NCBI RefSeq assembly: GCF_900109145.1
Contig: NZ_FNYY01000009.1
Coordinates: 1 to 64,000 of the forward strand
Length of the DNA: 64,000 bases
Reading direction: 5' to 3'
DNA from: Marinovum algicola
GTDB taxonomy: Bacteria; Pseudomonadota; Alphaproteobacteria; Rhodobacterales; Rhodobacteraceae
Under the pieces are notes generated by a model. The model saw only the letters and a list, made by a program, of their open reading frames with translations. It did no database searches and was not told where the DNA came from. Below, piece after piece: positions 5,135-33,216 of the stretch. The number at the start of each line of letters is the position of its first letter. The stretch's first letter is position 1. The position numbers were made by a program, and so were the translations under genes.

Positions 5135-5932
5135 ATGGGCCGAGTGTCGAACCGTTCCTGCATCGTGACCGGCGCCGCGCGCGGTATCGGCCGGGCCATC
5201 GGCGAAGCGCTGCTCGACGAGGGCGCAGACGTCTGCTTTGCCGATATCAACGGTGATCTGGTGCAACTGGTCGCCGACCGGAACGCGCCGCGCGCCGCCG
5301 AGACCGGCGGCAAGGTGACCTGGGCCGCCGTTGATGTCGCCGACCGCGCCCAGGTGCGCGCCATGATCGACAAGGCGGTGGCCGTCTTCGGAAAGCTCGA
5401 CGTCAAGTTCAACAATGCCGGCGTCAACAAGCCGATGAACTTTCTCGAAGTAACCGAGGACAACTGGAATTTCATCATGCGCGTCAACGGGCTGGGCTGC
5501 ATGATCGGCATGCAGGAGGCGGCCAAGCAATTCATTCGCCAAGGCACGCCGGGCAAGATCATCAACACCGCCTCGATCGCCAGCCGCCAGGGGTTTGACA
5601 ATGTCGCGCCCTATTGCGCCAGCAAATGGGGGGTTGTTTCGCTGACCCAATCCGGGGCGCGCGATCTGGCGAAACATGATATCACCGTCACGGGCTTTGC
5701 GCCGGGCGTCGTGGCCACCGAAATGTGGGAAGAGGTCGACCGCGACCTGCTGGCCATCGGTGCGGCGCAGAAACCGGGCCAGGCGATGGAGGAGTTTTCC
5801 GCCGAGATCCTCCGGGGCCGCGTCGCCAGGCCGGAGGACATCACCGGCACGACAACCTTTCTGGCCTCGCGCGACAGCGACTACATGACCGGCCAGATCG
5901 TGATGATCGACGGCGGCATGACTTTGGTCTGA
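5135..5932 (+). CDS. SDR family NAD(P)-dependent dehydrogenase
   Basis: A 265-residue classical SDR with TGAARGIG near the N-terminus, FNNAGVNKP, catalytic Ser in TASIASRQ, the YCASK signature and the C-terminal GQIVMIDGG. ATG at 5135 follows a clear GGGAGG. It lies inside a sugar-type ABC transport operon between the binding protein and the permeases, so it probably oxidises the imported polyol or sugar. It is a paralogue of the SDR at 1213-2022 in the divergent unit, so the locus may encode two consecutive or stereo-complementary oxidations. Confidence 0.9.
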   Translation: MGRVSNRSCIVTGAARGIGRAIGEALLDEGADVCFADINGDLVQLVADRNAPRAAETGGKVTWAAVDVADRAQVRAMIDKAVAVFGKLDVKFNNAGVNKPMNFLEVTEDNWNFIMRVNGLGCMIGMQEAAKQFIRQGTPGKIINTASIASRQGFDNVAPYCASKWGVVSLTQSGARDLAKHDITVTGFAPGVVATEMWEEVDRDLLAIGAAQKPGQAMEEFSAEILRGRVARPEDITGTTTFLASRDSDYMTGQIVMIDGGMTLV

Positions 5933-5937
5933 GCGGG

Positions 5938-5997
5938 GCGCTCCGCAGGCAGGGGCGCCACCGTTCGGCTGGTTGACAGGAACGGCGCCGGGAGCGC
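5938..5997 (+). other. Long two-part stem-loop before the permease genes
   Basis: The outer arms GCGCTCC (5938-5944) and GGAGCGC (5991-5997) pair perfectly. Inside them GGCGCC (5954-5959) pairs with GGCGCC (5984-5989) and CGTT (5962-5965) with AACG (5981-5984). This fills the gap between the SDR and the first permease and leaves the GGGGAGG ribosome site free. Likely an mRNA processing or stabilising element; no T-tract follows. Confidence 0.35.
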
Positions 5998-6015
5998 GCC
6001 GCAGGGGAGGACCGC

Positions 6016-6990
6016 ATGACAAGCGTCACCAAGACACAGATCGGGGGCTTTCTGGCCCGCCAGGGCATCCTGGTAGCCTTTGCGCTCTTTATCATCGGGT
6101 TCACGCTGGCCAATCAGCGCTTTCTGGACCCTGACAATATCCTGGGCGTGGTCCGGTCCTCGGCCATTCTCGGCGTCATGGCGCTGGGGGTGACCTTCGT
6201 GGTCATCAGCGGCAATCTCGACCTGTCGGTCGGTTCGATGATGTCGTTCTCGACCATCGTGGTGCTCGACCTGCACGACAAGCTCGGCCCGACGCTGGCA
6301 ATCCCGGCGATGTTCGCCATGACCCTCTGCCTCGGCGCCTTCATCGGCTTTCTGGTGGGTTATCTCAAGCTCAACTCGCTGATAGTCACCCTCGGCATGC
6401 TCTCGGCGATCCACGGGCTGACGCTGACCTATTCCGGCGGCCAGAACATGGACATCGCCGACAAGGCGGGAACCTGGTTTTCGGTCTTCGGCCAGGGCGA
6501 GGCCCTGGGCATCCCGGTGCCGATCCTGATCTTTCTGCTGCTGGCCGCCGTGCTGGGAACAATCCTGGCCCGGACGCCCTTCGGCCGCAAGGTCTATGCG
6601 GTGGGCGGCAATGGCACCGCGGCCACCTTTTCCGGCATCCGACGGGCGCGCGTGGTCTTCGCCTGCTACCTGATGTCGGCCTTCTGCGTGGCCACCGCCG
6701 GGCTGATCCAGGCCAGCCGTTCGCTGGGCTCGCAGAACACCGTCGGCCAGGGGCTGGAGCTGGAGGTTCTGGCGGCGGTGATCCTTGGCGGCGCATCGCT
6801 TCTGGGCGGGTCGGGCACGATCTTCAAGACCGTGATCGGCGTGCTGATCCTGGGCTTCATCCAGAACGGCCTGCTGCTGGTCGGCCTGCAATTCTATGTC
6901 CAGTATGTGGTGACCTGGGTGATCATCATCCTCGCCGTCTGGCTCGATGTCGCGGCCAAACGCGGCAAGCTCTTGTCGCCGATCGCCTGA
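6016..6990 (+). CDS. Sugar ABC transporter permease (RbsC-like)
   Basis: A 324-residue inner-membrane subunit of the BPD_transp_2 (RbsC/AraH) family with many hydrophobic segments. Family signatures are visible: TFVVISGNLDLSVGSMM near the N-terminus, the GRKVYAVGGNGTAATFSGI loop that contacts the ATPase, and the glycine-rich AAVILGGASLLGGSG. Together with the next permease it would form a heterodimeric channel fed by the binding protein at 4097 and driven by the ATPase at 8001. GGGGAGGACCGC precedes the ATG. Confidence 0.93.
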   Translation: MTSVTKTQIGGFLARQGILVAFALFIIGFTLANQRFLDPDNILGVVRSSAILGVMALGVTFVVISGNLDLSVGSMMSFSTIVVLDLHDKLGPTLAIPAMFAMTLCLGAFIGFLVGYLKLNSLIVTLGMLSAIHGLTLTYSGGQNMDIADKAGTWFSVFGQGEALGIPVPILIFLLLAAVLGTILARTPFGRKVYAVGGNGTAATFSGIRRARVVFACYLMSAFCVATAGLIQASRSLGSQNTVGQGLELEVLAAVILGGASLLGGSGTIFKTVIGVLILGFIQNGLLLVGLQFYVQYVVTWVIIILAVWLDVAAKRGKLLSPIA

Positions 6991-27952: not shown

Positions 27953-28978
27953 ATGTCGAACCGCCTCATCAGCCCCCCTGCCCCGGAGAACAGTTTCGAT
28001 CCGGCGCACGCCCCATCCGGGGCGGGCCCGCGCGGCGCGGCCTCTGACAATACCTTGAAAGCCTATGCCCGGGATTGGGCGCATTTCTCGCGTTGGTGCC
28101 GGATGACGGGCACCGATCCGCTGCCGCCTTCGCCCGAGCAGGTCGGGGATTATCTGACGGCAATGGCGGCGCCCGCAGACGACCGGCAATCCCCTGCGGC
28201 CCGCTGCCCCCTTTCGGTGTCCACCATCGAGCGCCGGCTTGCCGGACTGGTCTGGAACTACGCGCGGCGTGGCTTCGCACTCGACCGCCAAGACCCGGAG
28301 ATCGCCACCGTGCTGGCCGGGATCAGACGCCGCCACGCCCGCCCCCCGGCGCAGAAAGAGGCCATCCGGCCCGCGGATATCTTGGCCATGGTGGGCACAT
28401 TGGGCTTCGACCTGCGCGGGCTGCGGGATCGCGCGATCCTGTTGCTGGGCTTTGCCGGCGGATTGCGTCGAAGCGAAATCGTCAGCCTCGACCGCCGCAA
28501 GGACGACACCGCCGACGGCGGCGGCTGGATCGAGATCATGGAGGCCGGCGCGCTCCTTACCCTCAAGGCCAGGACCGGCTGGCGCGAACTCGAGGTGGGG
28601 CGCGGTTCGTCCGAGCGGAGTTGCCCGGTGAAGGCGCTGGAGGACTGGCTGCACTTTGCCAGGATCGACACCGGGCCGGTCTTTGTCCGTACCTCCCGCG
28701 ACGGCAAGCGGGCACTGAAGGCACGGCTGACCGACAAGCATGTGGCGCGACTTGTCAAACGCACCGTTCTGGACGCCGGGCTGCGACAGGACTTGCCAGA
28801 GCAAGAACGACTTGCCCTGTTCTCCGGTCACAGCCTGCGCACCGGGCTTGCCAACGCGGCCGAGATCGACGCGCAGGCTGTTCAGAAACAGCAGGGCCAT
28901 GCCTCGGCCGAGAGGTCCGGTTCTCGACGCCAGGCCGACAGGTTTCAAGTGAACCTGACCCGAGCGGCGGGGCTCTGA
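27953..28978 (+). CDS. Tyrosine recombinase/integrase, apparent catalytic Tyr missing
   Basis: A 341-residue phage-integrase-family protein. The N-terminal SAM-like core-binding domain (NTLKAYARDWAHFSRWC) is followed by the catalytic domain: Arg in GGLRRSEIVSLD (about residue 172), Lys in TLKARTGWRE (about 205), HxxR in GHSLRTG (293-296) and the second His in QGHASAE (316). The nucleophilic Tyr, expected about nine residues later, is absent: residues 320-330 read ERSGSRRQADR and no Tyr occurs to the end. The protein is either inactive, a DNA-binding remnant, or affected by a local mutation or sequencing error. Divergent from the DUF1403/scpB pair; possibly a replicon dimer-resolution gene. 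Confidence 0.85.
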   Translation: MSNRLISPPAPENSFDPAHAPSGAGPRGAASDNTLKAYARDWAHFSRWCRMTGTDPLPPSPEQVGDYLTAMAAPADDRQSPAARCPLSVSTIERRLAGLVWNYARRGFALDRQDPEIATVLAGIRRRHARPPAQKEAIRPADILAMVGTLGFDLRGLRDRAILLLGFAGGLRRSEIVSLDRRKDDTADGGGWIEIMEAGALLTLKARTGWRELEVGRGSSERSCPVKALEDWLHFARIDTGPVFVRTSRDGKRALKARLTDKHVARLVKRTVLDAGLRQDLPEQERLALFSGHSLRTGLANAAEIDAQAVQKQQGHASAERSGSRRQADRFQVNLTRAAGL

Positions 28979-28984
28979 GCGGCA

Positions 28985-29012
28985 TGAGCCGAGGCCTTCG
29001 CCTTGCGGCTCA
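28985..29012. terminator. Bidirectional terminator between the recombinase and MFS genes
   Basis: Arms TGAGCCG+AGGC (28985-28995) and GCCT+CGGCTCA (29000-29003, 29006-29012) pair around a CTTC loop with a two-base bulge. It lies at the end of two convergent genes and overlaps the MFS stop codon. Confidence 0.45.
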
Positions 29013-30296
29013 GGGCCGGGCATCGCCCGAGAAGCGCGCAATCCGGGTGAGCAGATAGATCTGCCACAGCGCCGCCAGAATCGCCGCCCCGAAGACCGCC
29101 TGAATCGAGATCAGCGCGACAAAGCCGGCGCCGAGCAGCGGCAAAAGCGCTGCCGGCGCGGCCAAAGCATTGAAATAGGCGGAATAGGCCGGCCGCCGGT
29201 CATCGGGCGATATCTCCATGAGATAGCCCAGATAGCCGATGGTCACGCCGTTCATCATCGCCCCGATCAAAACGAAGAGCAGGGCAAAACCGATCAGCCC
29301 GGCCCCGGCCCAGATCAGCCATATCGCAATGAACGGCGGCACCATACGGACAATCGCGACCATGCGCAGCATCGCCAGCTTTCCGGCGCCATCACCGAGC
29401 CAGCCCCAGAGCGGGTTCGACAGCAGCGCCCCGGCGGTTTGCGCCCCCAGCAGGATGCCGACATCGGCCGCGCCGATGCCGTTGCCGGCGGCAGCGACGA
29501 CATAAAACGGCAGCGCCATCAACGTCGCGCCACCGAGCCATTGCGAATAGAGGAACAGCCGAAAGCGGGTGTCGGCTTGCAGCACCTGCCAACCGCCGCG
29601 CAAAAAGGCGGTGATACCCGTCGGCGTGGCTGTGCCCGCCTTGCGCGCCGGCACCGGCGGTTCCCCCGCCGCCACAAAGAACGTCGAGGACAGGATCATC
29701 AACAGCGCCGCCAACGCAAAGATCACGGCATGGGCCAGAAGCAGCGGCAAGGCGTCGATCGTCAGCCCGACAAAGCCCGCCACGGCAAAGGCGATCAACC
29801 CGCCGCCAAAGAAGCGCCAAGCCAGCATCCGGCTGCGGGCCTCGGAGCGGATCGAGCGACCGACGATGTCGTTATACGGCACCGCGACCACCCCGCTGAC
29901 AAAGGCATAGACCGTCCAGAGCGCGAGGAAGCCGACAGCCAGCGGCACCGGCGGCCAGTCGAATTGCGGCCAATCCGACCCCCACCAGAGCAGAATCGCG
30001 ATGAACGCCAGACAAGTCGCGCGCCCGTAGGCACCAAAAACGTAAAAGGGCATCCGCCGTTCGGCCCGCTCTGCCAGGTAGCCGACGAGCAGTTGCGGCA
30101 GCAACCAGCCAAGCCGCAGTATCGCGCTGGCAAAACCCACCGCAAAGGCGCTGCCGGTCAGATGAAAGACCAGGCTCGCCACGACGGTCGCGGAATCGAC
30201 CGCCGCCGCCCCACCCTGAAACGCCGCACCTGCGCCGGCAATGCGCCAGAACCGCCGGCTCTCATCGGGCAGTGTCGTCGGCTCAGACCCGGACAT
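29010..30296 (-). CDS. MFS transporter
   Basis: A 428-residue major facilitator with about twelve hydrophobic segments. Recognisable parts are AVGFASAILRLGWLLPQLLVGYLAERAERRMPFYV (helix 2 and the charged 2-3 loop) and, in the second half, TAGALLSNPLWGWLGDGAGKLAMLR. Its start lies inside the end of the flippase-like gene (14-base overlap), so it is translationally coupled and under the same mer-type promoter. By context it may export a toxic compound or a modified lipid. I see no conserved cysteine pair in it that would mark mercury handling. Confidence 0.85.
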   Translation of the reverse strand: MSGSEPTTLPDESRRFWRIAGAGAAFQGGAAAVDSATVVASLVFHLTGSAFAVGFASAILRLGWLLPQLLVGYLAERAERRMPFYVFGAYGRATCLAFIAILLWWGSDWPQFDWPPVPLAVGFLALWTVYAFVSGVVAVPYNDIVGRSIRSEARSRMLAWRFFGGGLIAFAVAGFVGLTIDALPLLLAHAVIFALAALLMILSSTFFVAAGEPPVPARKAGTATPTGITAFLRGGWQVLQADTRFRLFLYSQWLGGATLMALPFYVVAAAGNGIGAADVGILLGAQTAGALLSNPLWGWLGDGAGKLAMLRMVAIVRMVPPFIAIWLIWAGAGLIGFALLFVLIGAMMNGVTIGYLGYLMEISPDDRRPAYSAYFNALAAPAALLPLLGAGFVALISIQAVFGAAILAALWQIYLLTRIARFSGDARP

Positions 30297-31311
30297 TGGC
30301 CCGTTCCGCCTCGATCCGGGCTTGCCGGATGTCGATCCCCGATTGCCACAACACGACCAGCCCGATGCCGACGACCAGGATGATCGACACCATCCAGTTG
30401 AACAGGATCATCAACAGCGCCTGTTCTTCGGGAACGCCCAACAGCTGAAACGCAAGCGCCGTGCCGATGACAAAGCCCCCCGGCACCCGGACGAACCGCG
30501 ACAGCACCAGCGAAAAGCCGCCAAACACCATCAGGAAGAGGTAATCGAGCGGTGCCAGAACCACGCCAATGGCCAGCCCGGCCCAGAGAAAATGCGTGGC
30601 CGAGACAAATTTTGCCGCCACCGCGCCGAGCAGCACGTTCAGCCTGTGCTGCCGGCTGCGCGGCCAGACGACACCGCTGCACAGCGATCCGCGCAAGGCG
30701 GTGCCGTTGGCCCGGAACCAAAGGGCCACCCAGTCGAAGATGCGGCAAATCAGCGGCCCTTCCCGCGCAAATAGGGCGCGAAAGCGGAACATCGCCCAAA
30801 GCAGACCGCTGAAGAGCGCGAAATTCAGTGCCCCGGCGACCGCCAGGCCCAGCTCCAGATTGCCGGCGATCTGAGGCACCTCGCCCGCCATCGCCACGAC
30901 CCCGGCAAAGAGCGCAAAGACCACGCCATCGATAAATCGCGCGATGATGGTGGTGGTTAGCACGGTGCCCATCTTCAAGGTTTCCATCCGCGCGACCAGC
31001 CAGGACCGCACCAGCGGGCTGATGCCAAGCGGCACCAACACATTGGCGCCGTATCCCGCCAGCAGCGCCCCGGTCAGCCGCAGCGTGCGCACCGGTTTCA
31101 CATCATGCAGAATCTGACGCCATTTCCAGCCGTTCAGCACCTGCTCGAGCAGCACAGTCGCCGCCAGCACCACGATCCACCCGAGGTTGGCCGAGCCGAG
31201 CCCGGCCAAAAACCGGCCGAAATCGAGATCGCGGTACAGCCAGAAAACAATGGCAAGCGCGACCACACCGCCGGCAACGGGCAGCCCCCAGCGCGACAAG
31301 ATCCGTTTCAT
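30283..31311 (-). CDS. Flippase-like/lysylphosphatidylglycerol synthase transmembrane family protein
   Basis: A 342-residue membrane protein of the LPG_synthase_TM (UPF0104) family. It has about eight helices and family segments GYGANVLVPLGISPLVRSWLVAR, TTTIIARFIDGVVFALFAGVVA and FSLVLSRFVRVPGGFVIG. It lacks the soluble aminoacyl-transfer domain of MprF, so it is a stand-alone flippase-like protein. The start at 31311 overlaps the stop of a 25-codon leader ORF (ATGA). It is the first long gene after a promoter with a mercury-type MerR operator. Role in metal or envelope stress is inferred. Confidence 0.78.
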   Translation of the reverse strand: MKRILSRWGLPVAGGVVALAIVFWLYRDLDFGRFLAGLGSANLGWIVVLAATVLLEQVLNGWKWRQILHDVKPVRTLRLTGALLAGYGANVLVPLGISPLVRSWLVARMETLKMGTVLTTTIIARFIDGVVFALFAGVVAMAGEVPQIAGNLELGLAVAGALNFALFSGLLWAMFRFRALFAREGPLICRIFDWVALWFRANGTALRGSLCSGVVWPRSRQHRLNVLLGAVAAKFVSATHFLWAGLAIGVVLAPLDYLFLMVFGGFSLVLSRFVRVPGGFVIGTALAFQLLGVPEEQALLMILFNWMVSIILVVGIGLVVLWQSGIDIRQARIEAERANVRV

Positions 31312-31385
31312 GCCAGTGCTCCGCCAATCTCGTGCACCGTGCCGGATGCCCCTGCCCCGTGCCGGACATGCTGTTCTGTGGCCAT
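31308..31385 (-). CDS. 25-residue leader ORF coupled to the flippase-like gene
   Basis: Reading MATEQHVRHGAGASGTVHEIGGALA. AAGGGAG lies about seven bases before its ATG (a second in-frame ATG is six bases upstream), and its stop overlaps the flippase ATG as ATGA. The flippase start itself has no good ribosome site, so translation of this ORF would deliver ribosomes to it. Three histidines, no cysteine. It is the first ORF after the mer-type promoter. Could be only a leader for coupling, or a small peptide. Confidence 0.5.
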   Translation of the reverse strand: MATEQHVRHGAGASGTVHEIGGALA

Positions 31386-31419
31386 TGCCATCTCCCTTGC
31401 GCAATTTCCCTGACACGCC

Positions 31420-31451
31420 ATCCTACAGACCGTATCATGGTACGGAGTCAA
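31420..31451 (-). promoter_or_regulatory. MerR-type promoter/operator
   Basis: On the minus strand TTGACT (31451-31446) and TAGGAT (31425-31420) are 20 bases apart, an over-long spacer typical of MerR-activated promoters. The spacer holds the dyad CCGTACCATGATACGG (31445-31430), which matches the mercury operator pattern CCGTAC...GTACGG. It points toward the leader ORF, flippase and MFS genes; merR reads away from it. Confidence 0.75.
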
Positions 31452-31475
31452 CCACACAAGTGACAGGAGCGCCTG

Positions 31476-31886
31476 ATGAAACCCTTCACGATTGGTAATG
31501 CGGCAAAGGCAACGGGTGTCGGTGTCGAAACCATCCGCTTCTACGAGCGCCGCGGTCTTATCGCCCAGCCAAAGCGGCCCGAAGGCGGCGGCGCCCGCGA
31601 CTATGATGCCGACACCGTTGCGCGATTGCATTTCATTTGCAAGGCCAAGGAGATGGGGTTTTCCCTGGCCGAAACAGCGGAGCTCCTGGCGTTGAGAGAT
31701 GATGGCGAGGCCGGTTGCGCCACGGTGCGCGCCCGCGCCATCGCCAAACGCCGGGAGATCGAGATCAAGCTTCTCAGGCTGAAGGAGATGTGCAGCCTGC
31801 TTGATGACCTCATTGCCGGCTGCCCGGGGTCCGGGGAGCTGTCGGATTGCACCATTCTGGGGGCCATCGAAACCCACGACCGATGA
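31476..31886 (+). CDS. merR: MerR family regulator, Hg(II)-type
   Basis: A 136-residue MerR protein. The N-terminal winged helix (FTIGNAAKATGVGVETIRFYERRGL) is followed by the long dimerisation helix and a metal-binding loop. Cysteines 81, 116 and 125 have the same spacing (35 and 9) as the mercury ligands Cys82, Cys117 and Cys126 of Tn501 MerR. ACAGGAG precedes ATG. It faces an operator of mercury type but no merT, merP or merA; instead it faces a leader ORF, a flippase-like gene and an MFS gene. Hg(II) sensing is well supported by residues; the physiological target is open. Confidence 0.87.
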   Translation: MKPFTIGNAAKATGVGVETIRFYERRGLIAQPKRPEGGGARDYDADTVARLHFICKAKEMGFSLAETAELLALRDDGEAGCATVRARAIAKRREIEIKLLRLKEMCSLLDDLIAGCPGSGELSDCTILGAIETHDR

Positions 31887-31898
31887 GGCCGGCCCAGG

Positions 31899-32816
31899 TC
31901 AGGTCCACGGTCCTTTCGGACCCCGGGCCCGGGACTTGGGGATGCTGCTGGCCGACAGCGGGGTTGTCCGCGGCGCTGGCCGCGATTGGCTCGCCAAGGC
32001 CCGCAGGGCTGCGATGCGGTTCTCGGTCGCCGGATGGGTTGCGAACAGGTTGTCATGTTTGTGTGCGTGCAGCGGGTTGATGATGAACATATGCGCCGTC
32101 GCGGGATTGCGCTCGGCGGCGTGATTGTCGATCCGGGCAGCGCCCATGGCGATTTTTTCCAGGGCCGAGGCCAACCAGAGTGGCTGGCCGCAGATCTCGG
32201 CGCCCATCTTGTCGGCGGCGTATTCCCGTGTCCGGCTGATTGCCATCTGCACCAGCGCAGCCGCCAGCGGTGCGAGCATCATCATCAGCAACGTACCGAT
32301 CAGCCCAAGGCGTTCACGCGACCCGCCGAAGAACAGCGCAAAATTGGCCAGCACCGAGATCGCGCCGGCAAAGGTCGCGGTAACGGTCATGATCGCGGTG
32401 TCATAGTTGCGGATGTGGGCCAGCTCATGTGCGACCACCCCGGCCAGCTCCTCTCTTGTCAGGCTGCGCAGCAGGCCCGAGGTCACGGCCACCGCCGCAT
32501 TTTCGGGGTTGCGCCCGGTGGCAAAAGCATTGGGTTGCGGCGTGTCGATCAGATAGACCTTGGGCTCGGGCATCCCGGCGTTTCGGGCCAAATCCGCAAC
32601 CATAGCGTGCAGCCCCATCCGATCTCCCGGTGTCACCGGCTGGGCATTGTGCATCCGCAGCACCATGCTGTCGGAGTTCCACCATGTGAAGGCATTCATC
32701 GCCGCGGCCACCACCAGGGCGATCACCGCGCCGCCTGCCCCGCCGATCAGATAGCCGACGCCCATGAACAACGCGGTCATTGCCGCCATCAGCATTGCCG
32801 TTTTTACGTAGCCCAT
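31899..32816 (-). CDS. htpX: M48 family zinc metalloprotease HtpX
   Basis: A 305-residue HtpX with N-terminal helices ([44 protein letters not shown]), the zinc motif [13 protein letters not shown], two further helices, the third ligand region [12 protein letters not shown] and a short extra C-terminal tail rich in Ser/Arg/Pro. HtpX degrades misfolded inner-membrane proteins. GGAGACAACA precedes ATG at 32816; the frame extends upstream without a ribosome site. It converges with merR. It may deal with membrane damage linked to the neighbouring flippase/MFS pair. Confidence 0.92.
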
Positions 32817-33216
32817 TGTTGTCTCCGATCCTTGAATGCGCCTTGATGCAGGAAATATGGCGCGGATTTCGGGGCCTGCAAGTCGCCGCGTTGTGTGTGT
32901 CATAGGCCCGTTCCGGGCAATGGGTTGGCGCGAGGTTGGTGATCCCGTTGGCGGCCTTCTACTTCCTTAAAATCGCCCGAGAGAGACAGCCATTTGGCGG
33001 GCTGTACCGCGGCGAATGCGAGCAATTTCAGGAACGCCATGCCCGTGATTTTTCCGGTCGGGTTCCTTGGTCCAGATTGATCCGTTGCGAGGGTCTGCAA
33101 TCAACGTAGTGCAGCAGCGTGCGGCGCGGTTTGGTAAATTTTTGGGCCGGTCTTTAACGAGGGTCATCGTGACAATCTCTTCGGCACAGGGCAGGGCCTC
33201 GCCAGCTGATCGGCGT
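32817..33216. other. Gene-free stretch between htpX and repC
   Basis: About 400 bases upstream of htpX and downstream of repC. I find no convincing gene, only short open frames without ribosome sites, and no clear terminator for repC. It should contain the htpX promoter. The AT-richer patch around 33130-33165 (GGTAAATTTTTGGG) is unremarkable. Confidence 0.5.

What the first reader, a model, noticed from the sequence alone, without database searches (positions are those of the whole stretch)
29010..31886. Mercury-type MerR controlling a flippase-like protein and an MFS transporter
The three Hg-binding cysteines have exact Tn501 spacing and the operator is of mercury type with a 20-base spacer, yet no merT/P/A/C gene is present. 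The controlled genes are a lipid flippase-like membrane protein and an MFS carrier. This could be an undescribed mercury (or thiophilic metal) defence acting through the envelope.
Basis: partly seen in the sequence, partly recalled or inferred. Interest (0 to 1): 0.7.

Follow-up and report, generated by a model that had tools for sequence, protein, structure and literature searches.

The report
Mercury-type switch for membrane transporter pair
A marine bacterial plasmid carries a mercury-sensor-like gene switch wired to a lipid-flippase-like protein and a transporter instead of the usual mercury genes, and the same wiring recurs in other marine bacteria inside mercury and copper resistance islands and also in genomes with no mercury reductase, so it looks like an undescribed accessory arm of metal defence whose trigger and cargo are untested.

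Summary
The MerR (31476-31886 +) has Cys81/116/125, exactly the Tn501 spacing. Facing it is a mercury-type operator (7-4-7 palindrome, 20-bp spacer, 31420-31451) for a flippase-like gene (PF03706, MprF-like fold) and an MFS gene. It is the only such site in the window, against none in 40 randomised windows. The wiring is conserved: a MerR of this class lies near the flippase in 24 of 50 partly redundant loci, the operator in 22. In a tree the class groups with Tn501 MerR (96/95), apart from the host's mer-operon MerRs; links to ZntR or CueR are disfavoured, not excluded. A second perfect operator in the host precedes a DUF7482-DUF326 operon. The host has two complete mer operons elsewhere, each with its own MerR and a different operator. 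In other genomes the module follows mer genes, sits in copper islands, or (all 7 Ruegeria-type genomes checked) exists without merA. Best reading: an accessory regulon for Hg(II) or another soft metal, acting at the inner membrane. Metal and cargo are inferred, not shown. Regulator and operator types are known; this target set was not found in the literature searched.

The parts
31476..31886 (+). MerR-family regulator, 136 aa, with C81/C116/C125 at Tn501 spacing
   Evidence: Pfam MerR_1 and MerR-DNA-bind; best NCBIfam match mercury MerR TIGR02051, 111.9 bits, below the cut-off 150.85; groups with Tn501 MerR
31420..31451 (-). MerR-type promoter of the flippase-MFS operon: -35 TTGACT (31451-31446), 20-bp spacer, -10 TAGGAT (31425-31420)
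   Evidence: direct sequence; scans with controls; conserved in relatives
31429..31446 (-). operator palindrome TCCGTAC-CATG-ATACGGT
   Evidence: 2 mismatches to the published Hg-MerR consensus
31410..31438 (+). probable merR promoter CTGACA-17-TATCAT, overlapping the operator
   Evidence: promoter scan; inferred function
30283..31311 (-). flippase-like membrane protein, PF03706, MprF-like fold
   Evidence: AlphaFold model pLDDT 78.8; MprF matches Z 15.3-18.4, next fold 5.4
29010..30296 (-). MFS transporter, overlapping the flippase gene by 14 bp
   Evidence: AlphaFold model pLDDT 88.9; beside the flippase in 38 of 50 loci

Best explanation
This is the plasmid-borne part of a MerR regulon that is an accessory arm of alphaproteobacterial soft-metal (most likely mercury) resistance. 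Without metal, the MerR dimer sits on the palindrome between two overlapping divergent promoters, represses its own gene and holds the flippase promoter (20-bp spacer) inactive. When a thiophilic ion, most likely Hg(II), is bound by Cys81 of one subunit and Cys116 and Cys125 of the other, MerR untwists the spacer and RNA polymerase transcribes the flippase-MFS operon. In trans it would also switch on a DUF7482-DUF326 operon at the only other perfect operator in the genome. The products are not a mer reduction pathway: an MprF-like flippase and an MFS carrier, joined in relatives by a gamma-glutamylcyclotransferase-like protein, a DUF7482 protein and a Cys-rich DUF326 protein. They most likely protect the inner membrane and periplasm by moving a lipid or a thiol(-metal) conjugate, while the other proteins bind metal. 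Shown from sequence: genes, operator, conservation of the wiring, the second site, separation from the mer operons. Inferred: operator occupancy, the metal, induction, cargo and protective effect.
For: Three-Cys site at Tn501 spacing, invariant in the class. Operator matches the Hg-MerR consensus, unique in the window, none in controls. The operator, MerR, flippase and MFS recur together in many genera. The MerR class groups with Tn501 MerR, 96/95, with ZntR, CadR and CueR in the tree. The flippase module is joined to merTPFA/merA clusters in L020/L067, L024, L026, L028, L030 and L050; the MerR class without the flippase also follows merA in L118, L119, L122, L125. Second perfect operator in the host before DUF7482-DUF326, genes that sit between MerR and flippase in L022 and L026. 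Host mer operons use another operator and another MerR clade. Flippase model matches MprF specifically.
Against: No metal response can be tested here. The residue after C125 is T/S/A, not Pro127. Groupings with ZntR or CueR are not rejected (p 0.06 and 0.09). Many copies lie beside copper genes, and 20 of 50 flippase loci have no MerR, operator or mer gene, so the pair has a wider role. Flippase and MFS have no conserved Cys pair. The MFS fold gives no substrate.
Confidence: 0.55

Rival explanations
1. The same regulon, but the natural inducer is not mercury: the MerR senses another soft ion (Cu(I)/Ag(I)/Au(I), or Cd/Pb/Zn) and the flippase-MFS pair belongs to copper or multi-metal tolerance.
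For: Copies in Ruegeria, Leisingera and Roseovarius lie beside copper ATPases, CusA-type efflux or copper oxidases. 7 of 7 Ruegeria-type genomes with the operator lack merA. The class has C-S/T-I after C125 as ZntR does. AU test does not reject ZntR or CueR as closest kin. DUF326 proteins are known as copper storage proteins (own knowledge).
Against: A third ligand Cys (C81), lacking in the CueR sequence; ZntR's second Cys and His of the loop (C114, H119) are not conserved; the operator is of mercury type; the tree favours Tn501 MerR (96/95); CadR rejected (p 0.0095).
Confidence: 0.3
2. The flippase-MFS pair does a general envelope-maintenance job (for example lipid or thiol-peptide traffic) and was merely brought under a metal-responsive MerR; it repairs collateral membrane damage and does not handle metal.
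For: Deeper relatives keep flippase-MFS-GGCT with no MerR, operator or metal genes seen nearby (L029, L032, L041, L046, L047, L049, L053, L054). MprF-like fold; no conserved Cys pair.
Against: In metal islands the pair keeps its own dedicated MerR class and operator over genera. This reading overlaps with the best explanation; the two differ only in whether a metal complex is a cargo.
Confidence: 0.35
3. This MerR really serves the canonical mer operons elsewhere in the genome, and the local genes are bystanders.
For: Two complete mer operons exist in the genome.
Against: Those operons have their own adjacent MerRs of a different clade and a different operator. The only two exact matches to this MerR's operator in the genome are not at a mer operon. 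The local operator is conserved with the local genes.
Confidence: 0.03

Closest known systems
Tn501/Tn21 MerR and the divergent merR-merT promoter/operator
   Same: Three Cys ligands at the same spacing; CCGTAC-N4-GTACGG-type palindrome inside an over-long promoter spacer; divergent overlapping promoters; joined in the tree at 96/95.
   Different: Targets are a flippase-like and an MFS gene, not merTPA; 20-bp instead of 19-bp spacer; T/S/A instead of Pro after the last Cys; no His after C116; below the NCBIfam MerR cut-off.
'Mixed type' mer operators (7-4-7 palindrome in a 20-bp spacer) of Permina et al. 2006 (PMC1526738)
   Same: Same palindrome type and same 20-bp spacer.
   Different: Those precede mer genes in gammaproteobacteria; this one precedes flippase and MFS genes.
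Alphaproteobacterial mer operons with merK-like oxidoreductase (as in the host, contig C14)
   Same: Neighbours of the module in several genomes; may act in the same response.
   Different: Own MerR clade, own operator (CTGTAG-N3-CTACAG, 19-bp spacer), mercury reduction and import genes.
MprF flippase domain (PF03706)
   Same: Fold: six MprF entries at Z 15-18, next fold 5.4.
   Different: No lysyl-PG synthase domain; 10-13% identity; substrate unknown.
ZntR, CadR/PbrR and CueR metal sensors
   Same: Same regulator superfamily and promoter logic.
   Different: Different operators and, from own knowledge, targets that are typically P-type ATPases or copper oxidases; the tree separates them (CadR rejected; ZntR and CueR not formally).

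Membership tests
Mercury-type MerR (Tn501-like) | Three Cys ligands at positions equal to Tn501 C82, C117, C126 | tested here: met
   C81/C116/C125, invariant in 15 relatives
Mercury-type MerR (Tn501-like) | Palindrome TCCGTAC-4-GTACGGA in a long promoter spacer | tested here: met
   2 mismatches; spacer 20 bp, the rarer 'mixed' form
Mercury-type MerR (Tn501-like) | Groups with Tn501 MerR in a tree | tested here: inconclusive
   96/95 support, but long branches and AU test does not reject ZntR (0.06) or CueR (0.09) as alternatives
Mercury-type MerR (Tn501-like) | Pro after the last Cys (Pro127 in Tn501) | tested here: not met
   T in the window, S/T/A in the class; importance from PMC5027573
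Mercury-type MerR (Tn501-like) | Score over the NCBIfam TIGR02051 cut-off | tested here: not met
   111.9 of 150.85; four alphaproteobacterial mer-operon MerRs also fail (121-130 bits), so the test discriminates poorly here
Mercury-type MerR (Tn501-like) | Hg(II)-dependent activation | not testable with these tools
   needs a reporter assay
mer operon | merA and merT/P/C/F under the MerR | tested here: not met
   no MerT or MerC and no over-cut-off MerA in the window; hence not filed as a mer operon
PF03706 / MprF-type flippase | Pfam PF03706 over its gathering score | tested here: met
   74.3 bits against 33.4
PF03706 / MprF-type flippase | MprF flippase-domain fold | tested here: met
   Z 15.3-18.4, rmsd 3.5-4.4, 250-268 aligned for six MprF entries
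PF03706 / MprF-type flippase | Lipid flipping activity and substrate | not testable with these tools
   no synthase domain or lipid-synthase neighbour identified
ZntR-type zinc sensor | Second loop Cys (C114) and His119 for the two-zinc site | tested here: not met
   not conserved in the class; role of these residues from own knowledge
CueR-type Cu(I) sensor | No Cys on the dimer helix (two-Cys Cu(I) site) | tested here: not met
   C81 present and invariant; the CueR row lacks it

The most novel reading that the evidence does not exclude
A merA-independent mercury (or broad soft-metal) defence in which a mercury-type MerR alters the inner membrane through an MprF-like flippase and an MFS carrier, with DUF7482, a Cys-rich DUF326 protein and a gamma-glutamylcyclotransferase as partners; it would work alone in Ruegeria and as a second layer beside mer operons elsewhere.
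Probability: 0.25. Interest if true: 0.75.

Novelty: new variant of a known kind. Interest (0 to 1): 0.52.

Why it matters
If true, bacterial mercury/soft-metal resistance has an accessory arm that does not reduce, cleave or import mercury, run by a distinct MerR class with its own operator. It would give testable functions to DUF7482 and to a group of PF03706 and MFS proteins, and offer an explanation for mercury-type regulators in genomes that lack merA. The literature searches made here found no paper that links a flippase or this MFS to mer genes.

Tried and rejected
1) That the MerR serves the host's canonical mer operons: different operators, own MerRs. 2) That the operator is a chance palindrome: 0 in controls, conserved across genera. 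3) That flippase or MFS are MerT/MerC-like Hg carriers: no conserved Cys pair. 4) Substrate from fold: the MFS gave only generic matches (OxlT, SV2A, SotB, MCT1, ferroportin), no assignment; the sequence profile of the flippase found nothing significant in the PDB. 5) NCBIfam equivalogs: none passes its cut-off; calibration showed that the cut-off also misses alphaproteobacterial mer-operon MerRs. 6) A GGCT partner in the host: none found with one relative as query. 7) Papers on new mer genes: PMC8261052 and PMC11227200 mention no flippase or MFS.

Full report
WHAT WAS CHECKED. Pfam gives MerR_1/MerR-DNA-bind, LPG_synthase_TM (PF03706, 74.3 bits against a cut-off of 33.4) and MFS_1. Flippase and MFS overlap by 14 bp. 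The MerR cysteines C81, C116 and C125 have the 35- and 9-residue steps of Tn501 C82/C117/C126 (ligands from PMC5027573). The - strand reads TTGACT-CCGTACCATGATACGGTCTG-TAGGAT (31451-31420). Inside it, TCCGTAC-CATG-ATACGGT has two mismatches to the proteobacterial Hg-MerR consensus TCCGTAC-4-GTACGGA of Permina et al. 2006 (PMC1526738). That paper gives a 19-bp spacer as normal and reports 'mixed' sites with 20 bp in a few mer loci. The site is unique in the window and absent from 40 Markov-resampled windows. A sigma-70-like merR promoter (31410-31438) overlaps it, the classical divergent layout.

THE HOST GENOME. The window lies at C50:1-64000 of a 196-kb contig with repC- and parB-like genes; a near-identical stretch is plasmid pMaD4 of Marinovum algicola DG 898, with the same neighbours (flippase 99.4% identical). 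The genome has two merA genes over the curated cut-off, at C14 and C54, each with merT, a merP-like gene and its own MerR; C14 also has a merK-like oxidoreductase gene next to merA. Those operons use TTGATC-CTGTAG-N3-CTACAG with a 19-bp spacer. A genome search for CCGTAYCNNGRTACGG finds two perfect places: the window site and C43:489, where TTGACA-CCGTACCTCGGTACGGCGGT-TAGAGT precedes a DUF7482 protein and a DUF326-like Cys-rich protein, with no MerR found beside them. This looks like a second target in trans. In Palleronia rufa (L026) MerR, DUF7482, DUF326 and flippase form one cluster, so the host arrangement resembles a split version.

CONSERVATION OF THE WIRING. 43 loci came from one scan of named genomes with the flippase; 7 more were added from plasmids and genome searches. 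They are not independent: several are Ruegeria, and L020 and L067 are near-identical. Of these 50, 24 have a MerR of this class near the flippase, 22 the operator, 38 the MFS, 20 a gamma-glutamylcyclotransferase-like gene, 7 mer genes, and 20 none of MerR, operator or mer genes. The operator pattern occurs in 10 of 391 genomes of the order, with 0 matches to the reversed control. In Indioceanicola profundi the order is MerR, merT, merP-like, merF, merA, oxidoreductase, MerR, DUF7482, flippase, MFS, GGCT. In L028, L030 and L050 the flippase follows mer-type genes directly. Searching the class with the MerR alignment gave twelve genomes at 165 bits or more, then a gap to 143. Besides the flippase module these MerRs sit behind merA next to P-type ATPases (L118, L119, L122, L125), in some as proteins of over 200 residues with an HMA-like tail. 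Copies in Ruegeria, Leisingera and Roseovarius lie among copper genes. None of 7 Ruegeria-type genomes with the operator has a merA match at E 1e-120, whereas the host, G121 and G257 do.

WHICH METAL. For mercury: three-Cys site, operator type, 96/95 support with Tn501 MerR also when ZntR is included, recurrent mer neighbourhood. Against a firm call: the residue after C125 is T/S/A where Tn501 has Pro127, which matters for Hg activation; ZntR also has C-S-I there. The AU test rejects CadR (p 0.0095) but not ZntR (0.06) or CueR (0.09). The NCBIfam mercury model is the best match but below cut-off, as it is for four alphaproteobacterial mer-operon MerRs used as yardsticks. My estimate is mercury about 55-60%, other soft metals about 30%.

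WHAT THE PRODUCTS DO. The flippase model (pLDDT 79) matches MprF and nothing else well (Z 15-18 for six MprF entries, then 5.4). There is no fused synthase domain. The MFS model (pLDDT 89) matches many MFS structures alike. Neither has a conserved Cys pair, so they are unlikely to hand on Hg through thiols as MerT/MerC do. The GGCT-like partner and the merK-like neighbour hint at thiol metabolism, but this is inference. The likeliest role is inner-membrane or periplasmic protection through movement of a lipid or a thiol conjugate.

VERDICT. A real, conserved, mercury-type MerR regulon with unusual targets. The regulator and promoter are known types; I found no description of this target set in the papers searched.

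Noticed in passing
host contig C43:483-1581 (L070, L087): A perfect copy of the operator and promoter precedes a DUF7482 protein and a DUF326-like Cys-rich protein with no MerR found nearby; a short IS200-like transposase ORF lies upstream.
   Followed up: partly
31311-31391 (-): A 27-codon ORF (MAMATEQHVRHGAGASGTVHEIGGALA) between the operator and the flippase ends in an ATGA overlap with the flippase start; among the loci held it was seen only in this plasmid and pMaD4 (one substitution). Leader or chance, unknown.
   Followed up: partly
L118 7056-7730; also L083, L119 and L022: MerR proteins of this class with an extra C-terminal stretch that in L022 and L119 reads like an HMA (MerP-like) metal-binding domain; several sit behind merA and before a P-type ATPase.
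   Followed up: partly
L029, L032, L041, L046, L047, L049, L053, L054: Flippase-MFS-GGCT operon without MerR, operator or mer genes in sight: an apparently older module of unknown role.
   Followed up: no
L036-L040, L057, L069 (about 5414-6525): Ruegeria loci without merA carry a second MerR, a MerT-like protein and a GDCCVxC protein next to the flippase module.
   Followed up: no
L020 (NZZV01000006.1): A locus from a MAG labelled Acidimicrobiaceae is near-identical to the Indioceanicola plasmid; probably a binning error in the public record.
   Followed up: no
31899-32903 (-) and 27953-28978 (+): An HtpX-like protease gene lies between merR and repC, and a XerD-like recombinase gene beyond the MFS gene; both also in pMaD4. 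HtpX was not found near the module in other loci.
   Followed up: no
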